Shown piece by piece: positions 16,648-40,446 of a stretch of 64,000 nt of DNA (position 1 is its first letter; every line of letters starts with the position of its first letter). Source of the DNA: Streptomyces thinghirensis (GTDB lineage: Bacteria > Actinomycetota > Actinomycetia > Streptomycetales > Streptomycetaceae); assembly GCA_021502835.1 (NCBI GenBank), contig JAKFGP010000007.1:1-64000 (forward strand). Reading direction: 5' to 3'. The notes under the pieces were generated by a model. That model was not told where the DNA came from and made no database searches. It saw nothing but the letters and a program-made list of their open reading frames with translations. Both the position numbers and the translations under genes were made by a program.

Positions 16648-16680
16648 CGCCGCTGTCAGATTCTCCGTCGATTAATGCGA

Positions 16681-16893: not shown

Positions 16894-16946
16894 GCCATCC
16901 TTCTCCCACTGCAAGGTCTTGCGCGGCGGATGGTGTCTCCACGGAA

Positions 16947-18577: not shown

Positions 18578-18589
18578 GGAACGGAGGTT

Positions 18590-18849
18590 AGCCGCAATCG
18601 TGCATGAGTATTCATCAAGTTCGCTGACGGGGACGCTGTGCGTGTGGGGTGCAGCTCTTCCGGGGGGTGAGGTCGCTCCTCCCGGACGACCAGCCTCATC
18701 CCCTGGGCCAGGTGCCCAGGTCGGGCATATCGGTGATTTGCGCGGCCCAGGCGCCGGGCCGTTCGGTGCCGCCGGCGTATTAGGGCCGGCGTCCACGCCT
18801 TCTTAGGAATCTTCAGTACGGCTTGGTGGATGCCGTCGGTGATGGTCAT
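18590..18849 (-). pseudogene. IS1380-type transposase C-terminal piece
   Basis: The minus strand reads DGIHQAVLKIPKKAWTPA, then YAGGTERPGAWAAQITDM and PDLGTWPRG in a shifted frame, then MRLVVREERPHP. This is the C-terminal signature of actinobacterial IS1380 transposases (a W..GMR.IVR.ERPHPGAQL pattern; family knowledge). The rest of the gene is absent here. A matching N-terminal piece on the same strand lies 2.3 kb to the right (21130-21805). Confidence 0.7.
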
Positions 18850-19086
18850 TCCGACGGAATAGGACAGCCACTGCCCATCAGGCGTGGATGCTGCCGCCGG
18901 AGTCGGTGCGGACCAGTGTCTGCCGCCCCAGCCGCAGAGTCTGGAGAGTCGTGCCAGGGCGAGTCGGGCGGTGAGGAATGCTCAGAACCTGTGGATCAGC
19001 TCGGGAGGGCGTACCTTCCCGGGTGATTGATCGATAGGTGACCGAGCAAGGCCGACGTTGCAGCGTCGGTCGGGAAGGCGCGCCCT

Positions 19087-20340: not shown

Positions 20341-20427
20341 AGCGCCCGCCGCGCGGTAAACGAGCTGTCTGTTGGGCGGCTACTGTTGCGCGTCGCCGGC
20401 CAGACTGCGGAAGGTCGGCCGGCGCTA

Positions 20428-22892: not shown

Positions 22893-23219
22893 ATGGACCC
22901 CGAGATCGTGATCGCGCAGACGACCAGTGACGACGAGGAGCAGGCGAAGAACCTCGCCAGAGGCGCTGTTGAGAGCAAACTGGCGGCGGGCGTCCACATC
23001 GATGCGCCCATCACCGCCTTCTACTGGTGGCAGGGGAAGGTCGAGGCGGCAGGGGAGTGGCGGATCTCCTACATGACGTCGGCGGATCGCCTCCCCGCGC
23101 TAGAGGCATGGCTGCACGAGAGGCACCCGTACGACGTCCCCCAGTGGATCACGCTGCCTGTGACCGGAGGGTCGGAGGCGTACCTGTCCTGGGTCGTCGA
23201 CGAGACGCGCCCGGGGTAA
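22893..23219 (+). CDS. cutA: Divalent cation tolerance protein CutA
   Basis: Intact, 108 residues. It shows the CutA pattern throughout: VIAQTTSDDEEQAKNLARGA (TT.... A..LA), VESKLAAGVHIDAPITAFYW (LAA.v.i), WWQGKVEAAGEWRISYMTSA (W.G.....EW.l..KT, here with Met-Thr), ALEAWLHERHPYDVPQWITL (HPY..P.I) and YLSWVVDETRP (YL.W). CutA forms trimers and has been linked to copper tolerance, although its role in most bacteria is unclear. It is separated from the previous gene by about 270 bases without a gene and lies convergent to the XRE regulator. Confidence 0.95.
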   Translation: MDPEIVIAQTTSDDEEQAKNLARGAVESKLAAGVHIDAPITAFYWWQGKVEAAGEWRISYMTSADRLPALEAWLHERHPYDVPQWITLPVTGGSEAYLSWVVDETRPG

Positions 23220-23269: not shown

Positions 23270-24521
23270 TCACAGCGTCGCGAACGTCAGCAGGTGGCTG
23301 GCCAGGTCATGCTCAGTGTCGGAGAGCCCGGCAGCGATGGCCTGAGCCCGCTGCCGGCCCATGGTGTTGGGCTTCGACTCCGCCGCTGCGGCGAACTGGT
23401 GCGCTACGTAGGCCCCGCGATCTACGTCACCGCCGCGCAGAAGGGCGGACGCCAGGTCACCCAGGACGACCACACCGGACTCGGGTAGTTCACCGCCGAG
23501 GCGCTCGACTGCGGAGTCGGCCGTGGCAGCCAGCTCCTGACGCTTGAGTTCGCCGTAGACCGAGAGGGTTAACGAGTCCATGCGGTATGGCGTCACGAAG
23601 CGGACCCACGCCTGCTCGCTCGTATGGTCGGCGAAGTCATAAGCGAACTCGGCCTGGTCGAGAGCACGAAGGGCGCCAGCGTCATCGCCTGACTGAGCGG
23701 CTTCCTCGGCATACCGGCCCAGAGCCCATGCTGCGGCGGTTGCGTTGCCACGTCCGCGTACGTCCTGAGCTGCCTGCGAAAGCATCTCCAGCGCCTTCGC
23801 TGGGCTGGGGGCACCGTAGCTCGCGTAGCCCAGAGCGAGAGCGCGCAGCGGAGGGTGTCCAGCCTGTTTCGCGCACTCCGAGGTCACCCGTAATAGGAAG
23901 TGGCCTTGTCCTGCTCGCCGAGGTCCCAGGCGACCCACCCAGCAAGAGCGGCAGTCTCCCCGGCCGCGATGGTCAGGGCTCGCTCGTGGGCTCCGGCGCG
24001 GGGAAGGGCTGCGGTGATCGCGTCCAAGTGCGCCTCGACGCGGGACTGCAGGCTGAGCGCACTCTCGTTCAGCTCGTCCACGTGCAACGTGGCCGCATGA
24101 TCAATAAGCACCCCCGCGGACTCAGGGTCGATCTTGGAACCCTTGCTGAGTGCGTACGCCAGCCGGCCCCACGGCTCCGCAGCCGCAGCCGCAGCCGCAC
24201 CGATGACTGCGCCTCCCAGCAGCGTTCGGCGTTTCACGTCGTCCAGGTCCTCCACCTCGGCCTTGTTCTTCTCTCGCCGCCTCGCGCGGGCGGCTCTCGC
24301 CTCGCGCAGTAGCGGCTCTAGCGGACGCCGCAGGCCAAGGCGATGTTCCCCAGGGTGTGGTCCGTCGGAACGTTCGCACCGTTCTCGTACCGGTTCACCT
24401 CTCGGCGGGTCACCGTTGCCCGGCCAGGAAGCGGCGTTGATCCGCCGGCCTGCTCGTCCTGCGTCCGATTCGCGTTACGCCGCAGGTGACGGAGCAGCTC
24501 GGCAAATGGATCCGCTGCCAT
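23270..24521 (-). CDS. XRE-family regulator with TPR-like C-terminus (reconstructed)
   Basis: ATG at 24521: MAADPFAELLRHLRRNANRT, an XRE helix-turn-helix (TVTRREVNRYENGANVPTDH and LGNIALACGV), then an Arg-rich linker. After one indel it reads DVKRRTLLGGAVIGAAAAAA, DHAATLHVDELNESALSLQS and LTIAAGETAALAGWVAWDLG. A second indel leads to TPR-like helices (ALRALALGYASYGAPSPAKA, GNATAAAWALGRYAEEAAQS). About 410 residues, the usual size of the large Streptomyces family of such regulators. It is divergent from the HATPase gene that heads the biosynthetic-type locus, so it is the likely pathway switch. Confidence 0.8.
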
Positions 24522-26691: not shown

Positions 26692-26722
26692 GGCACGACG
26701 ACACCCTGACGAGAGGACGATC

Positions 26723-27390
26723 ATGACCGTTCCCGCTTGCGGATCGCCACCCGCTCCGGCTGCGCCGAGCGACCACGGGTCGCGCGCTCTTCTCCTCGAC
26801 CTCGACGGGGTCCTCCTCGACACGCGTCCCGTGATGCGGAGGGCGTGGCAGAGGGTCCAGGAGGTCCATGGCGTCGCGCTTCCGTTTCGTGACTACGAGC
26901 GCCACCTGGGTCGCGAGTTCGGGGACATCATGGAGCGCCTGGGCGTGACCGATGCCGAGGCGGTCCGTAGGACGTACGAGGCGGAGTCCGTGTCCACCGC
27001 GCACCTCGCGGAGGAGTTCGCCGGCATCGTCGAGACGCTCCACGCCTTCGTGGCCGCCGACTGGCGGCTGGGCGTCGTGACGTCCAAGCACGTCGACCGG
27101 GCGGCCCCGCCCTCGCGCGCCTCGGGGTGTCCCTTCCGCGACCATCCGCACGCCCCGCCGGCGCGGGCCGGATGAAGCCGGCCCCGGACCCGCTCCTCCT
27201 GGCGCTGGCCGACCTGGAGTCGACCCCGCCTCCGCCGTCTACGTGGGTGACATGGCGGTCGACCAGGAGTCGGCCGCACGCGCCGGCGTCCCCTTAGTGC
27301 ACGCTGGGTGGGGCTACGGGCAGCCGACGGCTCCCGCCCCGGAGACGGTCTCGTCCCCCAGGGAACTGCTGGAGCCTCCTCCCCGCCAAG
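26723..27390 (+). CDS. HAD-superfamily phosphatase (reconstructed)
   Basis: ATG at 26723 behind GAGAGGACGAT. HAD motif I LLLDLDGVLLDTRPVM (nucleophile Asp and acid Asp) lies at residues ~22-37. The helical cap follows: RRAWQRVQEVHGVALPFRDY, FGDIMERLGVTDAEAVRRTY. Motif II is RLGVVTSKHVDRA. After indels comes a motif III Lys (MKPAPDPLLLALADLES) and motif IV VYVGDMAVDQESAARAGVPL. About 215 residues, like phosphoglycolate-phosphatase-type enzymes acting on sugar or nucleotide phosphates. The stop codon is obscured by an indel. In this locus it probably removes a phosphate from a pathway intermediate (inference). Confidence 0.8.
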
Positions 27391-27830
27391 CAGCTCGTCG
27401 AGGGGAGCACGGTGTGGCCCCGCACCACTGGTGGCCTCGGCCTGGTCCGCTCCTCCAACGTCGGGAAGCCGACGTGGATCTCGTCGGAACCGGCGCCCTG
27501 GCGCACGCGCGAACCGACCACATCCACACGACGGACCTTGATGCGACGGCCGTCGACAAAGCAGTTACTGCGCTCCGGCGTCGTAGACGTCATGGAGGCC
27601 GTCGACCGCTACAGCGCCAAGTGGGCCGCCACCCCGGGCGGAGCCGACTGGCTCCACGTTCAGCACGTCCCCGTGCGACGCTTCGTCGCCGAGATCGTGC
27701 GCAAGCTCCTGGCCCTGAACTCCTGGGCACCGTTCGCCTCCGCCCCAGGGCCCCTGATCCGGCCCCCTACGAAGGTCTCGTGGGACTGCGTTCGAGCAGC
27801 TCGCGGGAGTACCTGGCCTACACCGTGACA
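27391..27830 (+). CDS. Unresolved coding region, perhaps N-terminal half of the next protein
   Basis: Coding-like but not recognised. Pieces include LPAKQLVEGSTVWPRTTGGL, GLVRSSNVGKPTWISS, DHIHTTDLDATAVDKAVTAL, VVDVMEAVDRYSAKWAATPG, GADWLHVQHVPVRRFVAEIV and RKLLALNSWAPFASAPG. They lie in different frames and need at least three corrections. No stop is needed between this and the glycosyltransferase-like reading that follows, so the two may form one ~600-residue protein, or a separate ~150-residue gene. Confidence 0.45.
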
Positions 27831-29254
27831 TGGTCCGGCGTCGCGTACCTGCTCGGTGCTGCGGCACCGCACAACCCGACCCGCTCCGCCCAGCTCCGGA
27901 ACCGCGCCCGGACGAGTACGGCGAACACGGAGCCGTGTCCGCTCCCCTGGATCTCGGACGGCAGGACGTTCTGGCGCTGTCGTGGACCTCCCGCCATGCC
28001 GCCACGCTGACCCCCGTTCTCGCCGAGCTGGCGCGAGGCGGGCAGAGGAGCCTCCTGCTCGATCTCGCCACTGATGCCGCCGAGCGATGCAGCGCGGGAC
28101 CGGCAATGGGTTTCGAGCTGCGAGCGGCTCCGAGCAACCTCTTCACCGTCTCCGGCACCGCCGAGGGCCTCCACCGCCCCGACGACGAACACGTCGTCCA
28201 AGTGGAAGGCCACGGCGTCCAACTTGCCCGGCTCGTAAGGCTCTTGTCCGTTCTCTTGGAGACCAGCGGGGCTGCACCCAGCCGTCGTGGCGGACGGTGT
28301 GCGGCGCGAGAGCTGGCTCGACGACATCCTGTCGACCACCCGGCCGCACACCGTCTTGCTGAGCAACGACACCAGCCCACTGGGCGTGCTGGCCGCGCAC
28401 GCCGCCGAGCGGCACGGGCGAACTCGGTGCACGCCCAGCACGGGGCGTGGACGCCGGAATCGGTCGCCTGGCCGGCCCTGCACACGCCGCGACATCATCG
28501 TCATGGGCGAGCGGGACCCGCCCTGGGCCGAGGGTGGGCGCGCCACCCCGAGGCCGAGGTGCACGTCTCGGGCAGCCCCGCTTCGACGTCCTCACCAGCC
28601 TGAGCCGCCAGACACAACCGGCGGTACCTGGAGAACCTGCTCGCTCCGGGGGGCCGACGCGCGCCGACCCGGATCGCGGTGTGGGCCTGCCAGCCCTTCA
28701 ACCCCGATCACCTCAAGTCCCACGCGGACCTCCTCCTGGACGGGCTTGCCGAGGCGGACGGCGACTGGGGGCTCGTCATTGCTCCACACCCGGCGCAGGG
28801 AGCCGACGCCTTCACCGCTCTGGTGAAGCGGGACGCCGGGCCACCCATCGCGGTGGCCGATCCCCGAGTCCGGAGCCCGGGAGCGCTGCCCGCTGGCGCG
28901 GACGTCCTGGCGAGCGCGTACTCGACGTGGGATCGAAGCCGCGCTGCTCGGCATCCCGGTCCTCGAAATCGGCCCGCCGGGCGAACGCACCCTGGGCCTG
29001 ACCAGTCACGGACTGGCGACCCGGTGCGAGGCCGCCGGTGAGGTCGCCGAAGCACTCTCCGGCTTGCGCGCGTGCCCTGCGGCGATCCGCGGGCGGCCCC
29101 GGACGCGGTCTGCCGGTGGCGCGGCGACAGCGCCACTCGGATCGCCCGGCTCATCACCGACCGCGCCACCTCCGGCCCGAGGGCCGACGACTCCACCCAC
29201 CACCATCCGGGCGCCGCTGCGTCGCCCAAGGACGAAGGAGCATCCGTCCGATGA
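27830..29254 (+). CDS. GT-B-type glycosyl/glycerophosphotransferase (reconstructed)
   Basis: Reconstructed across at least four indels. An N-terminal Rossmann half reads DVLALSWTSRHAATLTPVLA and GGQRSLLLDLATDAAERC, then RRESWLDDILSTTRPHTVLL and LGVLAAHAAERHGANSVHAQ, HGAWTPESVAWPAL and RDIIVMGERD. The C-terminal half reads VHVSGQPRFDVLTSLS, WACQPFNPDHLKSHADLLLD, WGLVIAPHPAQGADAFTALV, then ASAYSTCGIEAALLGIPVLE, a donor-binding motif of GT-B enzymes related to CDP-glycerol glycerophosphotransferases and UDP-GlcNAc 2-epimerase-like folds. The TGA at 29252-29254 overlaps the ATG of the thymidylate-synthase-like gene. Likely cytoplasmic transferase of a sugar or polyol unit. The donor is unknown. 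Confidence 0.7.
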
Positions 29255-30197
29255 CATCCCTCATGGCCGACAGCATCGCCGAGCTGTTCTCCGGCGCCGT
29301 CACGCTGGCCAAGTCCGGCGAGAAGATCAGCCCCCGGGGCATGGCCACCCACGAAGTCCGCGATGTGCACCTGCTGCTCACCCAGCCGCGTGCCCGCCTG
29401 CTCTACGCCCCGCCCGCCCGCATCGTGAATCCGGCGTTCGCCGTCGCCGAGACGGTCTGGCACCCGTCCGGCTCCGACGCCCCGTGGATCTTCGACTACA
29501 ACAACCGGCTGCGGCAGTTCGCCGACGAAGGCGTCCTCCTGGGGGCGTATGGCCCCAGGATGCGGAACTGGGCCGGCAAGGTCGACCAGGTCGCCCGCGT
29601 CGTCGAGATCCTCCAGGCCGACCCCGACCCCGGCGCGCCCTGATCCAGCTCTACGATCCGCCCAGGACGCCGCAGGGCACAAGGACGTGCCGTGCACCCT
29701 TGGGTTCCGGTTCCACTGCGCGCCGGCCGCCTGCACATGGCGACCATGATGCGCGGCCAGGACGTATGGATCGGCATGCCGTACGACGTGTTCTTCTACA
29801 CCGTGCTGCACGAGTTGGTCGCCGGATGGCTCGACGCCGAACTCGGCGAGTTTCACCTGCACATCGGCTCGCTGTACATCTACGACGAGCACATCGAGCA
29901 GGCCGACATGCTCACCTCGCTCCCGGCGAGCGAGATCATGCCGGACCTGCGAACACCCTGGAACGGCTTCGGCGGCCTGCTCGACCAGGTCGAGGCCTGT
30001 GACGTGACCGGCCACCCTGGTTGGGACGCGATGGCCGAGACGCTGCGCAGCTACCGGCTGTGGAAGGACGGCAAGCGCGAGCAGGTGTGGCGGGCGGCCG
30101 ACACGATGGACGGGCCCTCGGCCAAGCCCTCACCGCCTGGTACGGAGAGCTGGAGCGGTGCTCGACCACCGCGCGCGCGACGGCAGGGGCAAGGTGA
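29251..30197 (+). CDS. Thymidylate-synthase-family enzyme, predicted cytidylate (hydroxy)methylase
   Basis: ATG 29251 behind AAGGACGAAGGAG. About 310 residues after four one-base corrections in C/G runs. The thymidylate synthase plan is clear: folate/substrate region (VAETVWHPSGSDAPWI and LLGAYGPRMRNW), the nucleophile Cys in HKDVPCTLGFRFH (codon 29693-29695), MATMMRGQDVWIGMPYDVFF and FHLHIGSLYIYDEHIEQ. The Asn that reads the base in thymidylate synthases (LGLPFN) is Asp here (GMPYD, 29785-29787). This is the change found in dCMP hydroxymethylase of phage T4 and in CMP hydroxymethylase MilA, which act on cytosine nucleotides. It therefore probably methylates or hydroxymethylates CMP or dCMP at C5. 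It is followed by a carbamoyltransferase, which could use the new hydroxyl. Confidence 0.85.
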
Positions 30198-30205
30198 CCG
30201 CCGCC

Positions 30206-31924
30206 ATGAAGCGCACCCCTCCGTCGTCCTCGGCCCGTGCTCGTACACTCCACGACCTCGGTCCGCCCTTCTCGTCGACGGTGAACTCGTCGGCTTCGTC
30301 GAGGAGGAACGCCTCTCCGAGCAGAAACACACCAAGCTCTACCCGGCTCGCGCCGTGGGCTGGCTCCTCGACCAGGCCAAGTTGAGCGCCACCGACGTGG
30401 ACGCCGTCGCTTACAACTTCCAGCCCGCCCGCTACCTCGCCGAGTCGCCCGTCGCCCTGCGCATGGCGCCTTCGTCGGCCACGCGCGACCGCAGCTTGGC
30501 TTGCGCCCACGGGTTTGCCAGAGGTCGCCCTGCGCACCCGGCGGCGGCTGCGCGTCCTCGGCAGCCAGTTCCCCGGCCCGCGTCACATCGGTCCTGCACC
30601 ACCGAGCCCACCAGCTCACGGCCTACGCCGCCTCCGGCTGGGACGAAGCGGCCGTACTCGTCGTCGACAGCCTCGGCGAGCGGCAGACCACCACGATCGC
30701 CCACGGCCACGGCGCGTTCAGCACCCCCGCGTCCACACCCTGGAAGCGATCAACGACCCGGCCTCCTCGGCTACGTGTACGGCGCCGTCACCGAGCACCT
30801 GGGCTGGCGGCGGGGCGACGAGGAAGGCACCGTCATGGCGCTGGCCGCCCTCGGCGACCCAGCCCGCTTCCGGCACCTGTTCACCACGGCCGTCCGCACG
30901 ACGGCCACGGGCTTTCGCATCCACCCCGGCTACTTCCCGACGCGCACCCTCACCTCGGGATACCCGAGAACATCCCGGCGGTTCGTCGCCGAGACCTGCC
31001 CCGGAGCGGCACCCGAGCGAGCCGCTCACCGACGTCCACCGAGATCCGGCGGCTGCCCTTCAGGAGCGGGACCGGAGCAAGTGATGGTTCACCTTGCCCG
31101 TCGCGCCTGTGTGCTCACCGGCTCCCGGCGCCTGTGCGTGGGCGGCGGCGCGTCGCCACGAACTGCGTCAGCATCGGGAAGATCATCGAGGCTGACATCT
31201 TCGACGAGGTGTTCGTCCCGCCGGCGCCCGGAGACGCCGGAACCGCCATCGGGGCCAGCTCCTCGCCGTGCATGTCGATGGGCGTAGCCCTCGCCCGGTC
31301 GCCGGCATCGCCCGCCACTGTTACCTCGGCCCTCCTACGAGGACCAGCCCTCGACCTGGCCCCCGGCCCGGCCTCCGCCAGAAGACCCTCGGCATCGAGA
31401 CCGCCGAGTTCCTCGCCGACTAGCCTGCCCACGGGGTGATCGCCGGACTGTTCCAGGGAGGGCTGAGGCCGGGCCGCGCCCTGGGCAAACCGCCTGATCC
31501 TCGCCTCCCGCTGGAGCCCGGCGTCGTCGAGCGGCTCAACGCCACCGTGAAGTTCCGCGAACCGTTCCGGCCCCTTCGCCCCCATGGTCCCGGCCGAGCG
31601 CGCAGCCGGGTTCTTCACCCTCGGCCAGCCGGCCCCGTACATGTCCATGGCCTCCGGGGTGACGGACCTGACGCACGAGCGGGTGCCGGCCATCGTGCAC
31701 GCCAACGGCACCTCCCGCCTGCAGACCGTCACCCGATCGCAGAACCCGTTCATGCACGCGGTGCTGACCGCCTTCGGCCGCCGAACCGGCATCCCCGTGC
31801 TGATCAACACCTCCTCAACGTGAAGGGCAAGCCGATCTGCGGGACACCCGAGATGGCCCTGGACTGCCTGGCCAACTCCGGCCTCGACGCCCTGCTCCTC
31901 GAAGGGCGGTGGATCACCAAATGA
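30206..31924 (+). CDS. O-carbamoyltransferase (NodU/TobZ family)
   Basis: Starts near ATG 30206, nine bases after the previous stop; about 570 residues after corrections. The N-terminal Kae1-like domain reads SALLVDGELVGFVEEERLSE, QKHTKLYPARAVGWLLDQAK, VDAVAYNFQPARYLAESPVA, then HHRAHQLTAYAASGWDEAAV with the metal-binding HxxxH, and LVVDSLGE. The middle reads LGYVYGAVTEHLGWRRGDEE, GTVMALAALGDPARF and RRLCVGGGVATNCV. The C-terminal part has VKFREPFRPFAPMVPAERAA, PVLINTSLNVKGKPICGTPE and LDCLANSGLDALLLEGRWI, the family's usual end. These enzymes make carbamoyl-AMP from carbamoyl phosphate and ATP and transfer it to a hydroxyl of sugars or nucleosides. The stop overlaps the next start (ATGA). 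Confidence 0.9.
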
Positions 31925-32974
31925 AGATCGGATACAGCTCCTGGGGCTTCCTCGGCAACGGCGTCACCGACACCCCCGACGGAGGCCGCAGCCACCGCCG
32001 CCCTTCATCGACGCCCTCCTTGCCCGCGGTCACGAGATCGTCTTCCTCCAGCCCGACCGTGACCGCCTCGAAGCCGATGACGACCTCGGCGGCGCGTACA
32101 CCTTCGACGACGGCCTGCCCGGCATCGACGCTCTGTTCCTGGAGTGGCGCTGGGCGATCCCCGGCCGCAACACCACCGTGTGCGGCAGCGAGGGCACACC
32201 TGCGACCTCCACCGGCAGGCACAGCTCATCAACCACTACACGGCCCGGCACCGGACGCCCACCGTCATCTGGGACAAGGACCGCACCCTGCGCGCCGAGA
32301 GCGTGTGGCGCCGTACAGCCCACACCCGCGTCCAGCGAGGCCGCGCTTGCGCCAACCCCCGAGCACACTCGCTGCTCTTCCCCGTCGCCGAGGACCTCCC
32401 TCGCCCGGGCCGATGCCCTCGCCCCTGGCGGCGCGGCCCCGGGATCTCGCGCTCGGCTACGTGGGCAATCAGTACGACCGCGACGAGTCCTTCGACCGCT
32501 TCTTCGCCCCGGCAGCCGCCCGCGTCGAGCACCTGGTCGCCGGGAAATGGACCAAGACCGGCCGCTGGCCGCGCCGTCCGGTTCGCGGGCCGGATCCCGT
32601 TCGAGGACGCCGCTGGCGTCTACGGCCGGTCCCTGGCCACGGTGCTCATGCTGCCCGAGCGGTACGCCGCCGTCGGGCAGATGACCCAGCGCATCTTCGA
32701 GGCCGTGCTCGCCGGCTGCCTGCCGCTGCGCCCCGGCGGACATCCGCTTCGCCGACCGGTTCGTCCCGAAGGAACTGGTCGTGCGCTCCGGGACGACGTC
32801 CTCGAACGCCTCTCCTACCTGAGCGAAATCGCCGGCACTGAGCAGCACGCCGCCCTGAGCGCCGCATGTGTGGACCGCCTGCGTCTGTTCGGCCTGTGCA
32901 AGCAGGTCAACACCCTGGAGTCCGTCCTGCACGGCCTCCTCCAGACCACGGTGACCGAGCGGGGAGCTGCCTGA
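31921..32974 (+). CDS. Glycosyltransferase, CgeB-like (reconstructed)
   Basis: ATG 31921 overlaps the carbamoyltransferase stop. MKIGYSSWGFLGNGVTDTPD is a nucleotide-sugar-transferase-like first strand with glycine loop. Then FIDALLARGHEIVFLQPDRD, GIDALFLEWRWAIPGRN and TPTVIWDKDRTLRAESVW. After indels it reads DLALGYVGNQYDRDESFDRF, GRIPFEDAAGVYGRSLATVL, MTQRIFEAVLAGCLPL and FADRFVPKELVVRSGDD. The order and the 'Y..s...l......... .r.FEa...G.lpl' pattern match GT-B transferases of the CgeB/DUF3880 type. About 350 residues, cytoplasmic. Probably adds a sugar to the pathway product; donor and acceptor are unknown. Confidence 0.75.
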
Positions 32975-33005
32975 TGCAGACCGCTCGATCGACCACGGCG
33001 CGCGG

Positions 33006-33030
33006 ATCCTCCGGGCGCGTCCCGGAGGAT
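33006..33030 (+). terminator. Hairpin between the two halves of the cluster
   Basis: Perfect ATCCTCCGGG and CCCGGAGGAT arms (33006-33015, 33021-33030), five-base loop, in the only sizeable gap (95 bases) among the enzyme genes. It may be a terminator or attenuator. A TACGCT at about 33054 just before the next ATG (33070) could be a -10 box giving a nearly leaderless transcript. Confidence 0.5.
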
Positions 33031-33069
33031 GGTCCGCCGGACACCCGAACCTCTCTACGCTGGAGCACC

Positions 33070-33633
33070 ATGAAGAAGGTCGCCATCGTCGGCTGCGGAG
33101 GCAGCGGCAAATCCCACGTGGCCCGCGAATTGGTCGGATCTCTCGACGCCCCGGTGACGCACCTGGACGCCGCGTTCTACGACGACGAGTGGAACGCGTT
33201 GCCCATGGACAGTTCACCGACGTCCAGCGCGAGCTGGTGGCCCGCGAACAGCGCGGTGGGTGATCGACGGCAACTACAACTCGACGCTGCAGGTGCGGCT
33301 CGAAGCCTGCGACACGGTGGTCCTGATGGACGTGTCGATCATGGCGGGCGCATGTAGCCGGGATCTTCTCAAGGCAGATCCGGCACAGGGCCGGGCACAA
33401 GGGCAACGGGGTGCACAACTCGCATCCACTGGGGCGTGATCGCGTACAAGTCGCCACGTACCGGCGCAAGATGCGGCCCCGCGTGATGGCGAAGATCGGC
33501 GTCGGGCTCCGGCACCGACGTGGTGCTGCTGGCCAACCGGCGTCAGATCTGCGCGCCGCTGGCTGCGGAGGGTCGCCGCCGAGCAGTCCCGACCGGTCCA
33601 GTGCGCCGCCCCCGGCCAGGGGTGGTGGCATGA
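33070..33633 (+). CDS. P-loop NMP-kinase-like protein (FlaR/adenylate-kinase-like)
   Basis: ATG 33070: MKKVAIVGCGGSGKSHVARE, with Walker A GCGGSGKS, then LDAPVTHLDAAFYDDEWNAL. After an indel it reads QRELVAREQRWVIDGNYNST, LQVRLEACDTVVLMDVSIMA, IRHRAGHKG and VIAYVATYRRKMRPRV, ending in TGA 33631-33633. This is the adenylate-kinase-like family annotated as topology modulation protein FlaR, with the typical W.IDGNY motif. Such small kinases phosphorylate nucleotides or related small molecules. Within this cluster, phosphorylation of a modified nucleotide is a reasonable inference. The stop overlaps the methyltransferase start. Confidence 0.8.
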
Positions 33634-34480
33634 ACGAGCCCAACCCGTTCCTGGACCCCGCCCGACAGTCGGAGCTGTGCGGACCACGCCTCTCGGCTGG
33701 CCGGGGCGCACCAGCGCCCTGATGCGCGCCAGGACCGCCGGCCACCCGGTGCCCGAGACGATCGTCAGCCTGGTGCAGACCCACCACGCCCGGCCCAACC
33801 GGCTCGGCGTGGTGCTCGCACATCGGCTGCGGTCGCGGCACGAGCAGCCTCGTCATCGCCGAGCAGCTCCGGCCCGAGCGCGTCGTGGGCCTGGACGCCG
33901 CCCCCTCCTGCTCGCCCAGGCCCGCGAGCGCGCCAGACCTGCCCGACGGCACGGTGGACTTCGTCGAAGGCGACTTCCACGACCCTCCCTGCCCGACGGG
34001 TCGAGCGACATCGTCGTCGCGGCGTTCTGCCTCTACCACTCGCCGAGCCCCCAGGACGTCGTCGGGCAGATCGCCAGAGTCCTCGCCCCCGGTGGTGTGG
34101 CCGTGCTCGTCACCAAGGGCCTCGACAGCTACCGGGAGATGGACCATCTGGTCGCCTCCGCCGGCCTCGATCCGCGTGCCGCCCAGCACGAGAGCCTCTA
34201 CACCGCAGCCCACAGCGGCAACCTCGCCGACCTGGCCGCCTCCTCGCTCGACGTGATCGCCGTCCTGGACGAGGAGCACGTCTTCACCTACGACGGCCAC
34301 GATCACACGGTGCAGTACCTGGCCACCAACCCCAAGTACGACTTGGCGCCGGGCCTGTACGGCAACCCCGGTGCCCTGGCGGCGACCCTGCACGAGTTCC
34401 TTCCCGACCAGCCGCTGACCACCCGGTCCCGGATCACCTTCGTCGTCGCCCAGCCGAAGGGAGGAGGAGAGCCGACATGA
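33630..34480 (+). CDS. SAM-dependent methyltransferase (class I), reconstructed
   Basis: ATG 33630 overlaps the previous stop. After an N-terminal helix (RTSALMRARTAGHPVPETIV, SLVQTHHARPNRLGVVL) comes the SAM motif region, reconstructed as DIGCGRGTSSLVIAEQLRPE, RVVGLDAAPSLLAQARERAR, VDFVEGDFHDLPLPDGSSDI, VVAAFCLYHSPSPQDVVGQI and ARVLAPGGVAVLVTKG. These are motifs I, II, post-I and the 'LaPGG' loop of class I enzymes. The C-terminal part (YDGHDHTVQYLATNPKYDLA, LYGNPGALAATLHEFLPD) should bind the acceptor, which is unknown. About 275 residues. TGA 34478-34480 overlaps the next ATG. Confidence 0.85.
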
Positions 34481-35247
34481 GCCCCGCCTCGTTCTCCAAG
34501 CACTACCCGGAACCGGAGCGCGCGGCGGGGGGCGGTGCGCCACTACCGGTGGCTCACCGCGCACGCCAAGCCGCTGCGACAGCCGGCCCTCCACACTGCC
34601 GGACCGCGGTTCCTGACGTTCGAACGGATCGAGGGCCGCCCGTGCGTCCCGAAGACCTCCCGCGCGTGGCGCGGACCTGCTCGGCCACGCCCGCGGTGCC
34701 GCCTGGTCGAGCGACCTGCACTCCGCGTCGCTGGACACCCCGCACCACTTCGAGAGGACGGTTGCTCCTCTCGACGACTACCTCGGTCCCCGGACGATCG
34801 CTCTACGACGCCGCCACGAGCAGGGCTACCTGCCGAACAAGACGGCCCTGCACGCGATGCTCGGCCTGCTGCAGGCGACCGCCGAGGGCCCGTGCGCCTT
34901 CTACAAGGACAGCAATCCTCGGAACTTCATCATCTACCAGCACGCAGGACATCGTCGCCGTCGACACCGACGACCTGTCCCTCGCCCCGATGGGCTACGA
35001 CCTCGCCAAGCTCGTCGCGGCGCTCCACCTGACCTACGGGCCGCTCACGGACCAAGCCGTCACCTACCGCCCTGCTCGCGTACAACGCGGCAGCCCGACC
35101 TACGACGCCCGGCTGGGCACGACGGACCGGGGCCAGCTCGACAGCTTCCTGGGCCTGCACGCCGTGCTCACCGCCCCGTCGCGTGGCGGCCGCAACGGCT
35201 ACCACTACAGCCTGCCCCTCCGTTTCATGCACCGAGGAGCCTCGCGA
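34477..35247 (+). CDS. APH/choline-kinase-like phosphotransferase 1 (reconstructed)
   Basis: ATG 34477 overlaps the methyltransferase stop. MSPASFSKHYPEPERAAAEV then RHYRWLTAHAKPLRQPALHT, GPRFLTFERIEGRPVRPEDL and PRVADLLGHAHGAAWSSDLH. The N-lobe therefore seems short, lacking an obvious ATP lysine. The catalytic loop is read as CAFYKDSNPRNFIIYQ (Brenner-type D....N), then DIVAVDTDDLSLAPMGYDLA for the metal-binding Asp and KLVAALHLTYGPLTDQAVT. The family phosphorylates small molecules such as aminoglycosides, choline or sugars. About 255 residues; the stop is lost in an indel before the histidine phosphatase. Substrate unknown. Confidence 0.65.
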
Positions 35248-35891
35248 TCACCACCGAACTCGTCTTCGTCCGGCACGGCCAGGCCCAGTGCAACGCCGAC
35301 GGCCTGGTCGGAGGCCCACGCACCTGTACCGGCCTGACCAACCTCGGATATGCCCAGGCCGAACAGGCTGCACGCCGCCGCCACCGAGCACCTGAAGAAG
35401 CCGTTCGACGTCATCTACACGGGCCCGCGGATCCGTCTCGTCCAGACCGGCGAGATCATCGCCCAGACGCTCCAGATCCCCGTGCACCACGACGACCGAC
35501 TCGACGGCCCGGTCCACGGCGACGCCGACGGCCGGCCGTGGGACGCGGTGAAGACGGCCGCCGATGGCGGGCCCGCACGCCCACCCTGATACGCCCTGGG
35601 CCAACGGCTCTGACACCTGGAACGGGTTCCTGAAGCGCGCCAGTAGGAACCTGAGCCAGCTCATCGAAGGAGAACCACGGCAAGCGCGTCGTCTTCGCGC
35701 GCCACGGGGGAGACGGTGATCACCGCACACACCCTGCTGCTCGGCATCCCGATCGGCTCGCCCGCGGGATTCACAACCACACCCACCTATCACCTCGCTG
35801 GCAGCACCACCGCAACCGCCTGGGCCAGACCCGCTAGATGCTCGACCGGCACAACGACACCGAGCACCTCAGCCTCCTACGCATGGGCTGA
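35247..35891 (+). CDS. Histidine phosphatase (phosphoglycerate-mutase-like), reconstructed
   Basis: Start codon not clear because of an indel; the reading is ITTELVFVRHGQAQCNADGL with catalytic RHG. Then TGLTNLGYAQAEQAARRL, KPFDVIYTGPRIRLVQTGEI (the S/T-x-R-R..QTa helix), IAQTLQIPVHHDDRL, SDTWNGFLKRASRNLSQLI and KRVVFARHGETVITAHTLLL with the second His. The end, RWQHHRNRLGQTR and LDRHNDTEHLSLLRMG, is in a shifted frame with one in-frame TAG that is probably an error for Trp. These enzymes remove phosphate from sugars or nucleotides. With the HAD enzyme it makes a second phosphatase in the pathway. Confidence 0.75.
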
Positions 35892-35896
35892 CCCCG

Positions 35897-36725
35897 TGAT
35901 CGCGACCTGCGCGACCCTCGGATGGCCGACGCACCTCCTCCTCGGCGCAGTCGACATCGCAGCGGACCCCGCGCTCCGCCCCGCGTCGTGCGCCTGGTGG
36001 CCGGCGACGGGCGTCAGTTCATCGCGAAGCAGCACGCGGAGGAGACCGGTACGCCGGAGAACTCCACGCCTACGGGGCGTGGGTCACTCATCTGACCGGA
36101 CATGCACCGGTGGTGGTCGGCCGGGACAACGCCACCCGCACCCTGTTGCTCACCGCGCTCGCAGGCGACCGCGCATGCCCCCGGGCTCGCCCGAGGAGGA
36201 GCTGGCCCACCACGAGGCCGGGCACGTGTTGAACAAGCAGCGCACCGGCCACGGCCATGCCCAGGGCGGTGCCGTCGGCGCCTCGCTCGCCGAGCGGTTC
36301 CAGGAGTGGATCGACCGGGCAGTCCACGCCGACCTGCTCGATGCCGCCGAGGAGAACCTGCTGAAGCACCACTGGTCATCCTGGGCACCAGCCACATGGA
36401 CAGCGCGATCTGCCACCTCGACTACCAGCCGCGCAACTGGCTGCTCGGCGACACCTTCGGCATCTACGACTTCGAGCGCATGCGACGCGGGACGCCCGGG
36501 TCCGCGACTTCGCCCCTGGGCGCTCAATTCCGACGCTGGCAGGCCGCACCCCACCTCCGCACCGCCTTCACTCGCGGCTACGGGACGCTCGCCCACCGAC
36601 GCCGAACGCCGCCTCCTGGAGTCCTTCGGCGCCATCGAGGTGGCCACAGCCCTGGTCAAGGGCCACCAGGAGAACGACGCCGCGCTCAGCGCGCACGGAG
36701 AACCGTCCTGTCCCGGCTCACCTGA
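35897..36725 (+). CDS. Aminoglycoside-phosphotransferase-like kinase 2 (reconstructed)
   Basis: Start uncertain (GTG 35897 or ATG 35922). It reads VVRLVAGDGRQFIAKQHAEE with the ATP-binding Lys, LHAYGAWVTHLTGHAPVVVG, TRTLLLTALAGDRA and EEELAHHEAGHVLNKLH. Then RFQEWIDRAVHADLLDAAEE, the catalytic loop HMDSAICHLDYQPRNWLL (HxDxxxxN), and GIYDFERMR for the metal site. The end is DAERRLLESFGAIEVATALV, stopping at 36725. All APH hallmarks are present, unlike the first phosphotransferase. It could activate a sugar or nucleoside in the pathway or give self-resistance to its product (both inference). Confidence 0.8.
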
Positions 36726-36761
36726 CTAGCCCTCTTAGACGACACCACTCTGGAGATCTCC

Positions 36762-37759
36762 GTGCCACAGCACGAGCTAGCCCCCGACCAACGCTTCGCC
36801 CCGACGGGCCGTGGTGACCGGCTCCGCCGGATTCATCGGCTCCCACCTCGCCCACGCCCTCGTCCAGGCCGGCACCACCGTGATTGGCGTGGACCGGCGA
36901 GACCCGTCTACCGACCCGACGGCCGCCGCCAACCTCGCCGCGCCTCTGGTCGCCCGGGATACTACACGTCATGGCCGACCTCCTCCACTGCGCGATCGAC
37001 CCGCTCCTGATCGACGCCGACACCGTCTTCCACCTCGCCGGCATCCTCGGCGTACGGCCCTCGTGGGGACCGCAGTTCGGCGACTACCTCGCGTCCAACG
37101 TGCTGGCCACCCACCGCGTCCTCGAAGCCTCCACCCGGATCGGCGTATCCCGGCTAGTCGTAGCCTCCTCCTCCCAGCGTCTACGGTCCGACCGACGGCG
37201 ATGCAAGTCGCGAGACCGACCGCCCCACCCCGCTTCCCCGTACGCCGTGACCAAGCTGGCCGAGGAGCAGCTCTGTTTCGCCTACGCCGAGCGCCCCGTC
37301 GGCCCCAGCGTGGTCGCCCTGCGGTACTTCACCGTCTACGGCCCCCGGCAGCGTGCCGACATGTTCACCCACCGCGCCCTGTACGCCGCCCTGACCGGAC
37401 AACCCCTGCGCCTTTACGGAGGCGGTCACCAGCGCCGCGACTTTACCTACATCGACGACGTGGTCGCCGCCATGATCGCCGCCGGCGACCATCCCGAACG
37501 CGCACGGCACCATCAACGTCGGCGGTAGCTCGAACGCGTCCCTGCTGGACGTGATCAACATCGCCAACAGCCTCACCGGCCGCGAGATCCAGCTCCACCA
37601 GGACCACGCGCGCAACGAGGCGTCCTCCTCACGCGTGCCGACCCCGGCCGTGCGGGAGAGGTCCTCGGCTGGCAGCCGCGCGTCGACCTCCACAGCGGAC
37701 TGCGCGCTCACATGCAGGCGCTGGCCTCCCCGGTGCCGGACTGCAGCCGTGCCGCCTAG
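36762..37759 (+). CDS. NAD-dependent sugar-nucleotide epimerase/dehydratase
   Basis: GTG 36762. After an indel it reads AVVTGSAGFIGSHLAHALVQ with the Gly motif TGxxGFIGSH, AGTTVIGVDRRDPSTDPT, DTVFHLAGILGVRPSWGPQF and YLASNVLATHRVLEASTRIG, VSRLVVASSSS. Then VYGPTDGDAS, SPYAVTKLAEEQLCFAYAER with the catalytic YxxxK, VALRYFTVYGPRQRADMFTH, LYGGGHQRRDFTYIDDVVAA and TINVGGSSNASLLDVINIAN. This is the extended SDR family of UDP-glucose 4-epimerase and NDP-sugar 4,6-dehydratases. About 320 residues. It would shape the sugar used by the locus glycosyltransferases. The exact reaction cannot be read from sequence. Confidence 0.9.
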
Positions 37760-37790
37760 GCGCACCCGTCGGATCACGAGAGGAGTGCTC

Positions 37791-38916
37791 ATGGAGACCC
37801 CCGAGCGAGCGCGGCTGGACGCCTTCTTCCGAAGGATCACCGCGCAGTTCCCCGCTGGCCAGGCGATCACGACGTTGGTCATCACGCACCTGCTCCAGGA
37901 ACGACCTGCTGTTCTGCGCGCCATGACCGCGGTGTCCACGATCGGCGCCGTCCTCCCCAAGCCCCGGTCGATCCACCAGCCGACCCTCGACACCGTCCGC
38001 CGCACCCTGCCGGTCCACGACCTGAGCCGCGAGCGGTTCACCGACGAGACCCAGGCCCTGCACTACCTGGAAGACACGGCCGGCGGCCAGGACGTCGTCC
38101 TGGTCGACATCGGCGGCTATTTCTGCAGCCAGCCTCGACACCCTCGTGGACAAATTCTCCGGCCGCATCCTCGGCGTCGTCGAGGACACCGAGAACGGAC
38201 ACCAGCGGTGCGCGGCCCTCGGCTCGCTCCCATGCCCGGTCGTGTCCGTGGCCCGCTCACCGCTCAAGGACTGCGAGGACCACCTCGTCGGCCGGTCCAT
38301 CGTGTTCTCTACCAGACGCCCTCGTCCGCGCCCGCCGGGGACATCCTCACGAGCCGCACCGCCTGCATCATCGGCTTCGGCAAGATCAGTCGCTCGATTG
38401 CGCAGACCCTACGTGCCCAGGACCTGCGCGTCACCGTGTACGACAACGACGCGGTCAAGCGGGTACAGGCGCACGCCCTCGGCTTCCATACCAGCGCGTC
38501 CACCACCGGGCCGTCCACGACGCGGATCTCGTCCTGTGCGCCACCGGCAATCTCGCCCTCCGGCACGAGAGATTCGCCGCCCTGCAGCAACGGCGCGTAC
38601 CTCAGATCGGTGACCTCCTCCGAGGACGAAGCTCGAACTCGGCAGCCTCGACGACCTCTACGAACGTCAACCCGTCGGACCCCAGTTGACCCGGTATGAG
38701 GTCACCGGCCACTACTTCTACGTTCTCGCCGACGGCGGTGCCGTCAACTTCGTGCACGGCGCCGCCGTCGGCACCTACATCCACCTCGTCCAGGCCGAGA
38801 TACTCGCCGCCACCGCCACACTCAGCCACGCGCGACTCCAGCCCGGACTGCGTGAGATGCCGGCAGCCGACCGCGACACCATCGCCAGAACCTGGCTCCG
38901 CCACTTCGAAAGGTGA
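37791..38916 (+). CDS. AdoHcy-hydrolase-like NAD-binding protein (reconstructed)
   Basis: ATG 37791 behind GAGAGGAG. METPERARLDAFFRRITAQF, TTLVITHLLQERPAVLRAMT, TETQ-like DETQALHYLEDTAGGQDVV and LVDIGGYF. Then TLVDKFSGRILGVVEDTENG, CPVVSVARSPLKDCEDHLVG, a Rossmann motif TACIIGFGKISRSIAQTLRA, QDLRVTVYDNDAVKRVQAHA, DADLVLCATGN, ALQNGAYLASVTSSEDEL and HYFYVLADGGAVNFVHGAAV. The layout resembles S-adenosylhomocysteine hydrolase (NAD-bound oxidation of a ribose 3'-OH), but at ~375 residues it is shorter and the His/Asp substrate motifs are not obvious. Oxidation or dehydration of a nucleoside sugar is an attractive inference. TGA overlaps the Nudix start. Confidence 0.7.
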
Positions 38917-39472
38917 CCCCGTTGCCTCCCTCCACCGAACACGTCCGTGCCGTCACGGAGGCGTACCTCGCCCGCCACCCGAACGAGCGCGCCTCCCCTA
39001 CGATGCTGTTCGCCGTGCTCGCGGGCGCGGACGATCCCACCAGCCGCAAGACCTTCCCCGCCCACGTGACCGGCAGCGCCATCGTCATCAACGGTGAACG
39101 GCACGTGCTCCACATCCTGCACAAGGCGTCCGGGAAACTCCGGCGCCCGGCGGGCACAACGAACCGTCCGACCAGCGCCTGCGCGACGCCGCCCTGCGCG
39201 AACTGCACGAGGAGGCGCCGGCATCCCGCCGAGCGCCGTGGTTCCCCTCGCCGGCCACGAGGACACTCCTCGACATCGACGTGCACGCGATCGACGCGAA
39301 CCCGTCGAAGAACGAGCCGGCCCACCACCACGTGGACTTCGCTGGGCCTTCCACCTCGGGGCCGATCACGCGGTGACGCTGCAGGAGGAGGGAGGTCGAT
39401 GGCTACCAGTGGCGGCCGTTCGCGACCACCGCCTCACCCACCGTCCGCGCCAAGCTCGCCCAGCTCACCTGA
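38913..39472 (+). CDS. Nudix hydrolase
   Basis: GTG 38913 overlaps the previous stop (GTGA). MTPLPPSTEHVRAVTEAYLA, RHPNERASPTMLFAVLAGAD, HVTGSAIVINGERHVLHILH, then the Nudix box read across one indel as GGHNEPSDQRL and AALRELHEEAGI. It is followed by DIDVHAIDANPSKNEPAHHH, VDFRWAFHLGADHAV and VDGYQWRPFATT. The GGH.EP.D variant box is known from the subgroup that often acts on nucleoside diphosphate derivatives. About 185 residues. It could clean up activated sugar nucleotides or convert a pathway intermediate to the monophosphate. Confidence 0.85.
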
Positions 39473-39505
39473 AGCCCCCCGAACCCGACCACCAGGAGGG
39501 ACGTC

Positions 39506-40281
39506 GTGGCCGCCACCACAGCCCGACCGACCGACGCCGAACGGCGCCGGCACATCGCCGTCATACCCTGCCGCTGGGGTGCCTCCCGCTTCCCCGGCAA
39601 ACCACTGGCCCTCCTCGGCGGCAAGCCGCTGCTCTGGCACGTCCACCAGCGCTGTCTGGAGGCCAAACGCCTGCAGGGGCCGTCGTCGCAGCGGACGACG
39701 AACGCATCGAAGCAGCGTGCCGCGAACTCGGCATCGACAGCATCCGCACCGGGGAGCACCTCACCGGCACCGACCGCGTCGCGGAGGTCGCCGAACGTCT
39801 ACCAGCCGACGGATACATCAACGTGCAGGGCGACGAGCCGTTCATCTCGCCGACCGCCATCAACGACGTCTCCGAGGCCCTGGAATTCACTCCGCCCGGC
39901 ATCTTCGCCGTGAACGCCTACACCGAGCTGGTCGACGTCGGCGCCGTCCTGGACCACAACGTCGTCAAGGTCGTCGTCACGGCCCGCAGCGAGGCCGTCA
40001 TGTTCTCGCGCCAGCCCATCCCGTACCCAAGGGGCGACCGGCCGAAGTACCTGCGTCAACTCCGGGCCTCTACGGCTTCACAGGCAAGGCTCTCCAACAC
40101 TTCCGTCAGCTCCGGCAAGGGCCCTGGAGCGTGCCGAAGGAGTAGAGATGCTGCGTTTCGTCAAACACGGCCACGCCGTGCAGATGGTCCCTGTCCTGGA
40201 CGACGGTGTAGCGGTAGACACCCCTGGAGGACCTGACGCGAGCCGAGCGCTTCCTCGATCAGCTCGACGGAGCGGTTCATA
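39506..40281 (+). CDS. CMP-KDO-synthetase-like cytidylyltransferase (reconstructed)
   Basis: GTG 39506 behind AGGAGGG. VAATTARPTDAERRRHIAVI then PCRWGASRFPGKPLALLGGK with the nucleotide-binding P.R..ASRfPGKpL loop. After an indel, VVAADDERIEAACRELGIDS, HLTGTDRVAEVAERL, YINVQGDEPFISPTAINDVS, VKVVVTARSEAVMFSRQPIP, YPRGDRPKYLRQL, LYGFTGKALQHFRQL and VDTPEDLTRAERFL, all in KdsB order. KdsB joins CTP and KDO to CMP-KDO, a Gram-negative LPS precursor. A Streptomyces homologue must serve another 2-keto-3-deoxy acid or sugar. No KDO-8-phosphate synthase is seen here. The end is approximate. Confidence 0.85.
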
Positions 40282-40446
40282 GGCGTGGGACTGCACGGCC
40301 TATCTGCACGATGGGACGAAATCACCTCATCCGCGACTCGTGCCTAATCTTCGGAAAGCCCCCGTTCTCACTCTTAGCGAACAGCAGCTCCGGGGCTTGC
40401 CTGCTCATAGCCAGAGCCGCCTCACTCACCAAAGCTGCGCCTCGGG

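What the first reader, a model, noticed from the sequence alone, without database searches (positions are those of the whole stretch)
26723..40281. Undescribed-looking cluster for a carbamoylated, C5-modified cytidine or CMP-sugar product
Seen: a same-strand run of enzyme genes with ATGA/GTGA overlaps at 29251, 31921, 33630, 34477 and 38913. It combines a cytidylate-type thymidylate-synthase homologue, O-carbamoyltransferase, two GT-B transferases, NMP-kinase-like P-loop protein, methyltransferase, two APH-like kinases, two phosphatases, sugar-nucleotide epimerase, AdoHcy-hydrolase-like enzyme, Nudix and a CMP-KDO-synthetase-like enzyme. Known: MilA-like enzymes give 5-hydroxymethyl-CMP, carbamoyltransferases cap hydroxyls in nucleoside antibiotics, and KdsB makes CMP-ulosonates. 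Inferred: the product is a 5-(carbamoyloxymethyl)- or 5-methyl-cytidine joined to an unusual sugar, or a CMP-sugar for a modified surface glycan. I do not recognise a characterised cluster with this set.
Basis: partly seen in the sequence, partly recalled or inferred. Interest (0 to 1): 0.93.

Follow-up and report, generated by a model that had tools for sequence, protein, structure and literature searches.

The report
Conserved cytidine-sugar biosynthesis cluster, actinobacteria
Up to fourteen enzyme genes lie together in the same order in many streptomycetes, and a shorter core of them in many other actinobacteria; together they are predicted to make a small molecule built on cytidine that likely carries an acidic sugar and a carbamoyl group, a product for which my limited literature search found no description.

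Summary
The run of genes is real. The window's DNA is error-ridden (145 indels in 13.6 kb against a close intact relative), yet it aligns in one piece with an intact cluster in Streptomyces sp. SID9727. The genes travel together: TS homologue then carbamoyltransferase in 79 of 80 loci; TS-CarbT-GT-P-loop in order in 74 of 80, from 21 named genera. In 295 Streptomyces genomes the core glycosyltransferase occurs in 22, all among the 23 with the TS homologue.

The set has modules. A core would make and decorate a C5-modified cytidylate: TS homologue with the cytosine-selecting Asp in 75 of 75, carbamoyltransferase, a GT whose nearest solved fold is T4 beta-glucosyltransferase, and a UDP-glucuronate-type epimerase. 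A streptomycete add-on (HAD, second GT-B, CMP-KDO-synthetase homologue) is mostly present or absent as a whole. AHCY-like plus Nudix is a second option.

I found no characterised cluster with this set within the searches named. The product, and the atoms bearing sugar and carbamoyl, are inferred.

The parts
22893..23219 (+). CutA homologue, same place as in L001 (flank, probably not part of the pathway)
   Evidence: tblastn 95% over 108 aa; CutA1 in L001
23270..24413 (-). NsdA-family TPR-like regulator, divergent, upstream (candidate regulator)
   Evidence: tblastn with the L011 protein, 88-97% in three frames; the L011 protein passes NF053720 NsdA_fam_reg, 114.9 vs 75 bits
26210..26691 (+). 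DUF6082 protein directly upstream
   Evidence: Pfam DUF6082 42.3 bits; 97% to L001
26723..27411 (+). HAD-type phosphatase, first gene of the cluster (230 aa in L001; end approximate)
   Evidence: HAD_2 4.9e-11; L001 ORF 7468-8160 with DLDG motif
27412..29254 (+). GT615, second GT-B protein (accessory module)
   Evidence: tblastn; AlphaFold model of the L001 protein, pLDDT 83.4, C-terminal part GT-B like UDP-GlcNAc 2-epimerases
29251..30209 (+). Thymidylate-synthase homologue, cytosine type
   Evidence: tblastn 87% to L001 over residues 1-290; best PDB relative MilA CMP 5-hydroxymethylase
30206..31924 (+). O-carbamoyltransferase
   Evidence: Carbam_trans_N/C; PDB novobiocin-type, GdmN, TobZ
31921..32974 (+). 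GTB, GT-B glycosyltransferase of the core
   Evidence: Glyco_trans_1_2; model of the L001 protein, pLDDT 92.3; T4 beta-glucosyltransferase top fold match
33070..33600 (+). P-loop nucleotide-kinase-like protein (end approximate)
   Evidence: tblastn; NF005994 158.5 bits, below its cut-off 215
33630..34480 (+). SAM-dependent methyltransferase
   Evidence: Methyltransf_11/25
34477..35245 (+). APH1, weakly APH-like kinase (end approximate)
   Evidence: PF01636 24.2 bits vs cut-off 23.2; tblastn
35241..35895 (+). Histidine phosphatase (ends approximate)
   Evidence: His_Phos_1
35890..36729 (+). APH2, APH-like kinase (start approximate)
   Evidence: PF01636 7e-15 in L001; tblastn
36763..37759 (+). 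Sugar-nucleotide epimerase, UDP-glucuronate 4-epimerase type
   Evidence: PF01370; MoeE5 best PDB relative
37791..38916 (+). AdoHcy-hydrolase-like protein (optional module)
   Evidence: AdoHcyase_NAD, 20.8 bits in the window piece (cut-off 27), 62.1 in L001; PDB relatives
38913..39474 (+). Nudix hydrolase (optional module)
   Evidence: PF00293 in L001; tblastn
39506..40282 (+). CMP-KDO-synthetase homologue (accessory module), last gene of the cluster
   Evidence: CTP_transf_3 5.9e-18; L001 protein passes NF003952, 227.1 vs 193 bits

Best explanation
This is a conserved actinobacterial gene cluster that is predicted to build a small molecule from a C5-hydroxymethylated cytidylate, likely joined to a galacturonic-acid-type sugar and capped with a carbamoyl group. 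Shown: the genes, their families, their fixed order, their co-occurrence and their modules. Inferred steps: (1) the TS homologue would turn CMP or dCMP into its 5-hydroxymethyl form (cytosine choice is backed by the conserved Asp; ribose or deoxyribose is open). (2) The epimerase would turn UDP-glucuronate into UDP-galacturonate. (3) The core GT-B enzyme would put this sugar on the nucleotide, most likely on the new 5-hydroxymethyl group, as T4 beta-glucosyltransferase does on DNA. (4) The carbamoyltransferase would carbamoylate a hydroxyl, most likely of that sugar, and the methyltransferase would methylate. (5) The P-loop and APH-like kinases and the two phosphatases would add and remove phosphates, one of them perhaps to keep the product harmless inside the cell. 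(6) In streptomycetes the HAD, KdsB-like and second GT-B proteins would activate a further acidic sugar with CTP and attach it; the AHCY-like and Nudix pair would act on a nucleoside part.
Against: No product is known. MilA's ribose markers are not met. T4 BGT leads the best other GT-B row by only 1.3 Z, and a profile comparison with T4 BGT gives probability 11% (E 0.0028), so the acceptor is a guess. PDB relatives of the carbamoyltransferase are the decarbamoylnovobiocin enzyme, GdmN, TobZ and one more carbamoyltransferase; the 12 phage rows shown of 135 are 27-30% identical: this does not tell base from sugar. The AHCY-like protein differs from true SAH hydrolases in two stretches that I recall as part of the active site and is far below the SAH-hydrolase cut-off. 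KdsB is missing in 8 of 23 TS-bearing genomes and occurs in 5 genomes without TS, 4 of these truncated pieces; HAD and GT615 occur without KdsB in 8 of 80 loci. No gene is conserved after the cluster, so no exporter or resistance gene is either. No KDO-8-P synthase passes its cut-off in 20 genomes, so the acid that KdsB would activate is unknown; a NeuB homologue is in 19 of 20. Only one of the five KdsB-type NCBIfam models matched is passed.
Confidence: 0.5

Rival explanations
1. The carbamoyl group sits directly on the 5-hydroxymethyl group: TS homologue and carbamoyltransferase together give 5-carbamoyloxymethyl-(d)CMP, and the glycosyltransferases attach sugars elsewhere on the nucleoside.
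For: TS and CarbT overlap by 4 bases in L001 and are neighbours in 79/80 loci; such a pair makes 5-carbamoyloxymethylcytosine in phages (PMC8670742).
Against: The core GT-B enzyme, next in the operon, most resembles an enzyme that uses the same hydroxymethyl group; solved relatives of CarbT act on other hydroxyls (substrates recalled).
Confidence: 0.25
2. The cluster makes a CMP-activated sugar for a surface glycan.
For: A CMP-KDO-synthetase homologue that passes one KdsB-type NCBIfam cut-off, a second GT-B protein weakly like surface-carbohydrate proteins (18.2 bits vs cut-off 125), an epimerase.
Against: KdsB, HAD and GT615 are an optional module (29 of 80 loci lack all three); among upstream families found in 11 or more loci the tested representatives are TPR/HTH, CutA, ATPase, DUF6082 and TrmO-like, and nothing is conserved downstream; it does not explain the TS homologue.
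Confidence: 0.08
3. The product is a modified (d)CTP that enters nucleic acid or blocks phage polymerases: TS homologue, NMP-kinase-like P-loop protein and T4-BGT-like GT copy the T4 hydroxymethylcytosine route.
For: Deoxy-type residue pair (Ser+Arg) in 26 of 75 TS homologues; T4 BGT as best fold match; kinase-like P-loop gene in 74/80 loci.
Against: No polymerase or nuclease family among the 14 proteins; no PADLOC match for the 10 proteins tested; no phage hit for GTB; two phosphatases would fit a released nucleoside (inference).
Confidence: 0.1
4. Unrelated genes happen to lie together, or the cluster is a decayed remnant in this strain.
For: 13 of 14 genes are split between frames in the window; KdsB remnants occur in cluster-less genomes.
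Against: Order conserved in 74/80 loci; open in L001 and relatives; insertions and deletions are about equal in number in the alignment, as raw-read errors would be.
Confidence: 0.02

Closest known systems
Mildiomycin and bacimethrin pathways (MilA, BcmA)
   Same: TS homologue with the cytosine-type Asp; MilA is its nearest solved relative
   Different: No nucleosidase family (MilB's kind of activity) among the 14 L001 proteins by Pfam; MilA ribose markers replaced; carbamoyltransferase, epimerase, two GT-B and KdsB-like proteins present (which of these the mil cluster lacks is recalled)
Phage 5-hydroxymethylcytosine carbamoyltransferase pair (PMC8670742)
   Same: TS homologue and carbamoyltransferase together; Asp at the cytosine position
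   Different: Here a 14-gene bacterial cluster with sugar enzymes; phage carbamoyltransferases listed are 27-30% identical
T4 hydroxymethylcytosine glucosylation (gp42, beta-gt)
   Same: Hydroxymethylase homologue plus a GT-B enzyme whose nearest solved fold is T4 BGT; in T4 the two genes are neighbours too
   Different: No DNA-replication genes; carbamoyl, methyl and phosphate chemistry; UDP-uronate supply instead of UDP-glucose (inferred)
Moenomycin sugar unit (MoeE5; the carbamoyl and methyl steps are recalled)
   Same: UDP-glucuronate 4-epimerase homologue, carbamoyltransferase and methyltransferase in one cluster
   Different: Nucleotide instead of phosphoglycolipid; no prenyl enzyme among the 14
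Polyoxin (PMC4029187, seen only in a search listing)
   Same: A nucleoside pathway with TS-like and carbamoyl enzymes (recalled)
   Different: Peptidyl nucleoside; no set of this kind (recalled)

Membership tests
MilA-type CMP 5-hydroxymethylase | Asp at MilA position 186 (cytosine) | tested here: met
   75 of 75 TS homologues over 250 aa; criterion from PMC5175136
MilA-type CMP 5-hydroxymethylase | Lys133 and Ala176 (ribose preference) | tested here: not met
   Arg in 75/75; Gly 48, Ser 26, Ala 1
MilA-type CMP 5-hydroxymethylase | Catalytic Cys, Glu and ribose-binding His, Tyr | tested here: met
   Cys 75/75, Glu 74 (one gap), His 75/75, Tyr 74/75
Mildiomycin-type cluster | hmCMP N-glycosidase (MilB) | tested here: not met
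   No nucleosidase family among the 14 L001 proteins, Pfam E<=0.01; the rest of the genome was not searched for one
Phage 5hmC carbamoyltransferase system | TS homologue with Asp and carbamoyltransferase side by side | tested here: met
   79/80 loci; Asp 75/75
Phage 5hmC carbamoyltransferase system | Carbamoylation of 5-hydroxymethylcytosine | not testable with these tools
   Needs an assay
T4 BGT | Fold of T4 beta-glucosyltransferase | tested here: inconclusive
UDP-glucuronate 4-epimerase | Similarity to a characterised enzyme (MoeE5) and the carboxylate-binding Arg | tested here: met
   237.6 bits to MoeE5, named UGAepi in PMC7984243; aligned Arg in at least 95% of 54, its numbering resting on 6zl6 being the B. 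cereus enzyme (recalled)
CMP-KDO synthetase (KdsB) | Passes a curated KdsB-type model | tested here: met
   NF003952 227.1 vs 193; but below NF009905 (230.4 vs 255), NF003950 (182.4 vs 234), NF003948 (144 vs 281) and TIGR00466 (126.9 vs 155.2)
KDO pathway | KDO-8-phosphate synthase in the same genome | tested here: not met
   0 of 20 genomes over the cut-off, 1 of 20 with a weak match
S-adenosylhomocysteine hydrolase | Passes TIGR00936 | tested here: not met
   84 bits vs cut-off 497.6
Anti-phage defence systems in PADLOC | Any model match | tested here: not met
   0 matches at E<=0.001 for 10 of the 14 proteins; HAD, MT, HisP and Epim not submitted

The most novel reading that the evidence does not exclude
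Actinobacteria run a T4-phage-like hydroxymethylcytosine glycosylation on free nucleotides as a small-molecule pathway: (d)CMP is hydroxymethylated, uronosylated at the new hydroxyl, carbamoylated and methylated, and in streptomycetes capped by a second, CMP-activated acidic sugar. It would be a new class of conserved 5-hydroxymethylcytidine glycosides, with 5-hydroxymethyl-dCMP as entry point in part of the family.
Probability: 0.3. Interest if true: 0.82.

Novelty: new variant of a known kind. Interest (0 to 1): 0.64.

Why it matters
A cluster whose four core genes keep their order in loci from 21 named genera and whose TS homologue is in 23 of 295 sampled Streptomyces genomes, with no product known to me, is a good target: several core steps rest on families with a worked-out assay. 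If the inferred route holds, it links phage DNA base modification, nucleoside antibiotics and uronic-acid glycosylation in one pathway and gives a set of enzymes that modify free cytidine nucleotides.

Tried and rejected
A home-made codon-based gene finder found no training set in the window; frames were read as stop-to-stop pieces instead. The gene caller used on the relatives misplaces some starts (it cut HAD in L001 from 230 to 193 aa; corrected), so presence was counted by tblastn, not by its gene list.

Surface glycan: the upstream families found in 11 or more loci are two TPR/HTH regulators, CutA, an ATPase domain, DUF6082 and a TrmO-like protein by their tested representatives; of 20 downstream stretches, no family beyond the cluster recurs in more than 3. 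KDO: no KdsA over cut-off. Defence system: no PADLOC match for 10 proteins. Phage origin of the core GT: no phage match even at E 0.1. TS homologues on plasmids of Geobacillus, Streptococcus salivarius, Agrobacterium and Arthrobacter lie in other operons and were not pursued.

Literature: 10 searches of the held open-access library. CMP hydroxymethylase with carbamoyltransferase gave 0 papers, hydroxymethyl-CMP with carbamoyltransferase, gene cluster and Streptomyces gave 0, and the six-term search gave 0. Subscription papers, preprints and MIBiG/antiSMASH were not searched, so 'no description found' is limited to this. Papers: PMC8670742 passages and sections 11-12; PMC5175136, PMC12338863, PMC7984243, PMC3814723 passages; PMC4029187 and all others search listing only. 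PMC3814723 only calls MoeE5 an epimerase.

Fold search caveats: the first 182 residues of GT615 were barely tested. Families not listed there are not excluded. Genus-wide searches scored only the best 4-9 first-look candidates per genome. Some matches there are partial: GTB in G002 covers 172 of 348 positions; GTB in G132 and GT615 in G104, G132 and G165 come in two pieces.

From recall and no call: the HP motif as a mark of CMP-sugar transferases, SAH-hydrolase active-site stretches, 6zl6 as the B. cereus UDP-glucuronate 4-epimerase, the carbamoyl and methyl steps of moenomycin, substrates of NovN, GdmN and TobZ, kinase/phosphatase self-protection.


Full report
Observation. The window is streptomycete-like DNA (all 12 plasmid records that match window 22000-46000 are Streptomyces; ScpB and CTP synthase reading frames in the window, suggest a chromosome). 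13 of the 14 cluster genes are split between frames. One blastn alignment of 13,610 columns at 91.6% covers the cluster against L001 (Streptomyces sp. SID9727) up to the end of the stored locus inside KdsB, with 145 indels, 113 of them one base long, against three one-base indels and one of four bases between L002 and L001. The breaks are therefore best read as sequencing errors, not as decay.

Anatomy in the intact relative L001: HAD 7468-8160, GT615 8157-10004, TS 10001-10951, CarbT 10948-12678, GTB 12675-13727, P-loop 13824-14333, MT 14365-15213, APH1 15210-15956, HisP 15965-16621, APH2 16618-17454, Epim 17490-18488, AHCY 18520-19641, Nudix 19638-20198, KdsB from 20232 (complete in L097). 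Seven junctions overlap by four bases. KdsB is the last conserved gene: in 20 downstream stretches fetched from cluster-bearing genomes, families beyond the cluster occur in at most 3. Upstream lie DUF6082 (14 loci) or an ATPase-domain protein (16 loci) and a divergent regulator (family F014 in 24 loci or F017 in 14, never both); the F017 member of L011 passes the NsdA-family cut-off.

Do the genes travel together? The 80 best of 147 confirmed TS-family loci in GTDB species genomes come from 23 named genera plus one unnamed actinobacterium. By tblastn with L001 proteins at E 1e-6 on the same strand: HAD 50, GT615 51, TS 80, CarbT 79, GTB 79, P-loop 74, MT 71, APH1 73, HisP 61, APH2 60, Epim 74, AHCY 37, Nudix 32, KdsB 42 of 80; all 14 in 30. 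Some loci end at a contig or flank end, so the lower counts are minima. TS, CarbT, GTB, P-loop lie in this order in 74; the six others are L022, L035, L039, L042, L060 and L064. These loci were chosen by TS, so an independent test was made: in 295 Streptomyces genomes TS occurs in 23 (E<1e-100; next best 4e-46), GTB in 22, all inside those 23, GT615 in the same 23 plus fragments in 2 others, KdsB in 20, 15 of them inside. Four of the five KdsB outside are N-terminally cut pieces, and one of these (L119) shares five downstream genes with L001's genome, which looks like a scar of cluster loss.

Modules. HAD, GT615 and KdsB are all present in 42 and all absent in 29 of 80; 8 have HAD and GT615 only, 1 GT615 only. 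Genome-wide over 15 genomes, GT615 is in 4 and a strong KdsB in 3 of these 4. HisP and APH2 go together (60 both, 19 neither, 1 HisP only), AHCY and Nudix mostly (32 both, 5 AHCY only, 43 neither). The epimerase lies upstream of TS in 23 loci, none with GT615, and downstream in 51, 46 of them with GT615.

TS homologue. Best solved relative MilA, 117.7 bits, then true TS at 80.5. With the criteria of the MilA paper: cytosine Asp 75/75, catalytic Cys 75/75, but Arg for Lys133 in 75/75 and Gly/Ser/Ala 48/26/1 for Ala176. The Ser+Arg form, the deoxy-type pair, is mostly outside Streptomyces (3 of its 26 bearers are titled Streptomyces: L055, L056, L069). So cytosine is well backed, ribose is not. 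The Asp alone does not separate methylation from hydroxymethylation (PMC8670742, section 11: an Asn-to-Asp change in a TS gives 5-methyl-dCMP); hydroxymethyl is preferred here because of MilA and because a carbamoyltransferase needs an acceptor (inference).

Sugar. The epimerase is nearest to MoeE5 (237.6 bits), a UDP-glucuronate 4-epimerase (PMC7984243), then to 6zl6, which I recall as the B. cereus enzyme. The Arg that binds the UDP-GalA carboxylate there is kept. By NCBIfam its best model is galE, below cut-off (122.8 vs 262.3). A UDP-glucose dehydrogenase homologue follows APH2 within 70 bases in L059, L074 and L076. This points to a uronic acid. The core GT model (pLDDT 92.3) has T4 beta-glucosyltransferase as first match in both aligners, though the best other GT-B enzyme follows within 1.3 Z, and the sequence-profile link is weak.

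Carbamoyl. PDB relatives are the decarbamoylnovobiocin enzyme, GdmN, TobZ and one more carbamoyltransferase. In phages, a carbamoyltransferase encoded on a contig with a TS homologue modifies 5-hydroxymethylcytosine in DNA, RNA and free triphosphates. Base or sugar as acceptor cannot be told from sequence here.

Verdict. A real, conserved, apparently uncharacterised pathway for a C5-modified, glycosylated, carbamoylated cytidine nucleotide or nucleoside. The pathway claim is strong, the chemistry is inferred, the product unknown.

Noticed in passing
L119 10814-11419, L120 9332-9877, L122 9125-9415, L123 9239-9520: N-terminally cut KdsB pieces in Streptomyces genomes without the rest of the cluster; L119 shares five downstream genes with L001's genome, a likely scar of cluster loss.
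   Followed up: partly
L093 5489-16802, L094 7505-18286: Plasmids of Geobacillus thermodenitrificans and Streptococcus salivarius carry operons with TS homologue(s), an AAA-ATPase gene, a phosphotransferase, PqqD, QueA-like, CYTH and ABC-transporter genes (annotations): another undescribed-looking TS-based pathway.
   Followed up: no
L095 8974-11970, L096 8989-12011: In Agrobacterium and Arthrobacter plasmids a TS homologue overlaps a hypothetical gene that faces an ImmA/IrrE metallo-peptidase gene (annotations); same arrangement in two phyla, homology of the hypothetical genes not tested.
   Followed up: no
window 23270-24413; L011 4009-5292: Divergent NsdA-family TPR regulator next to the cluster; other relatives carry a second regulator family (F014) at that side, never both among the 80 loci.
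   Followed up: partly
L057 13684-14526, L069 11086-11931, L078 8113-8970, L070 15841-16875: Lineage-specific additions: a radical SAM protein after GTB in three loci (two tested by Pfam) and a sulfotransferase after APH1 in L070.
   Followed up: no
window 12640-14142 (-), 19428-20522 (+): Mu-type and Mutator-type transposase reading frames upstream of the cluster.
   Followed up: no
window 16950-17936 (-), 45282-46940 (-): A PD-(D/E)XK nuclease-family protein and a long TPR-repeat protein.
   Followed up: no
L027 4657-5112 (-): A TrmO-like (tRNA methyltransferase O N-terminal domain) gene upstream of the cluster in 11 of 80 loci (family F019).
   Followed up: no
window 26700-40282: Unpolished sequence: 145 indels in 13.6 kb against L001, about as many insertions as deletions.
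   Followed up: yes
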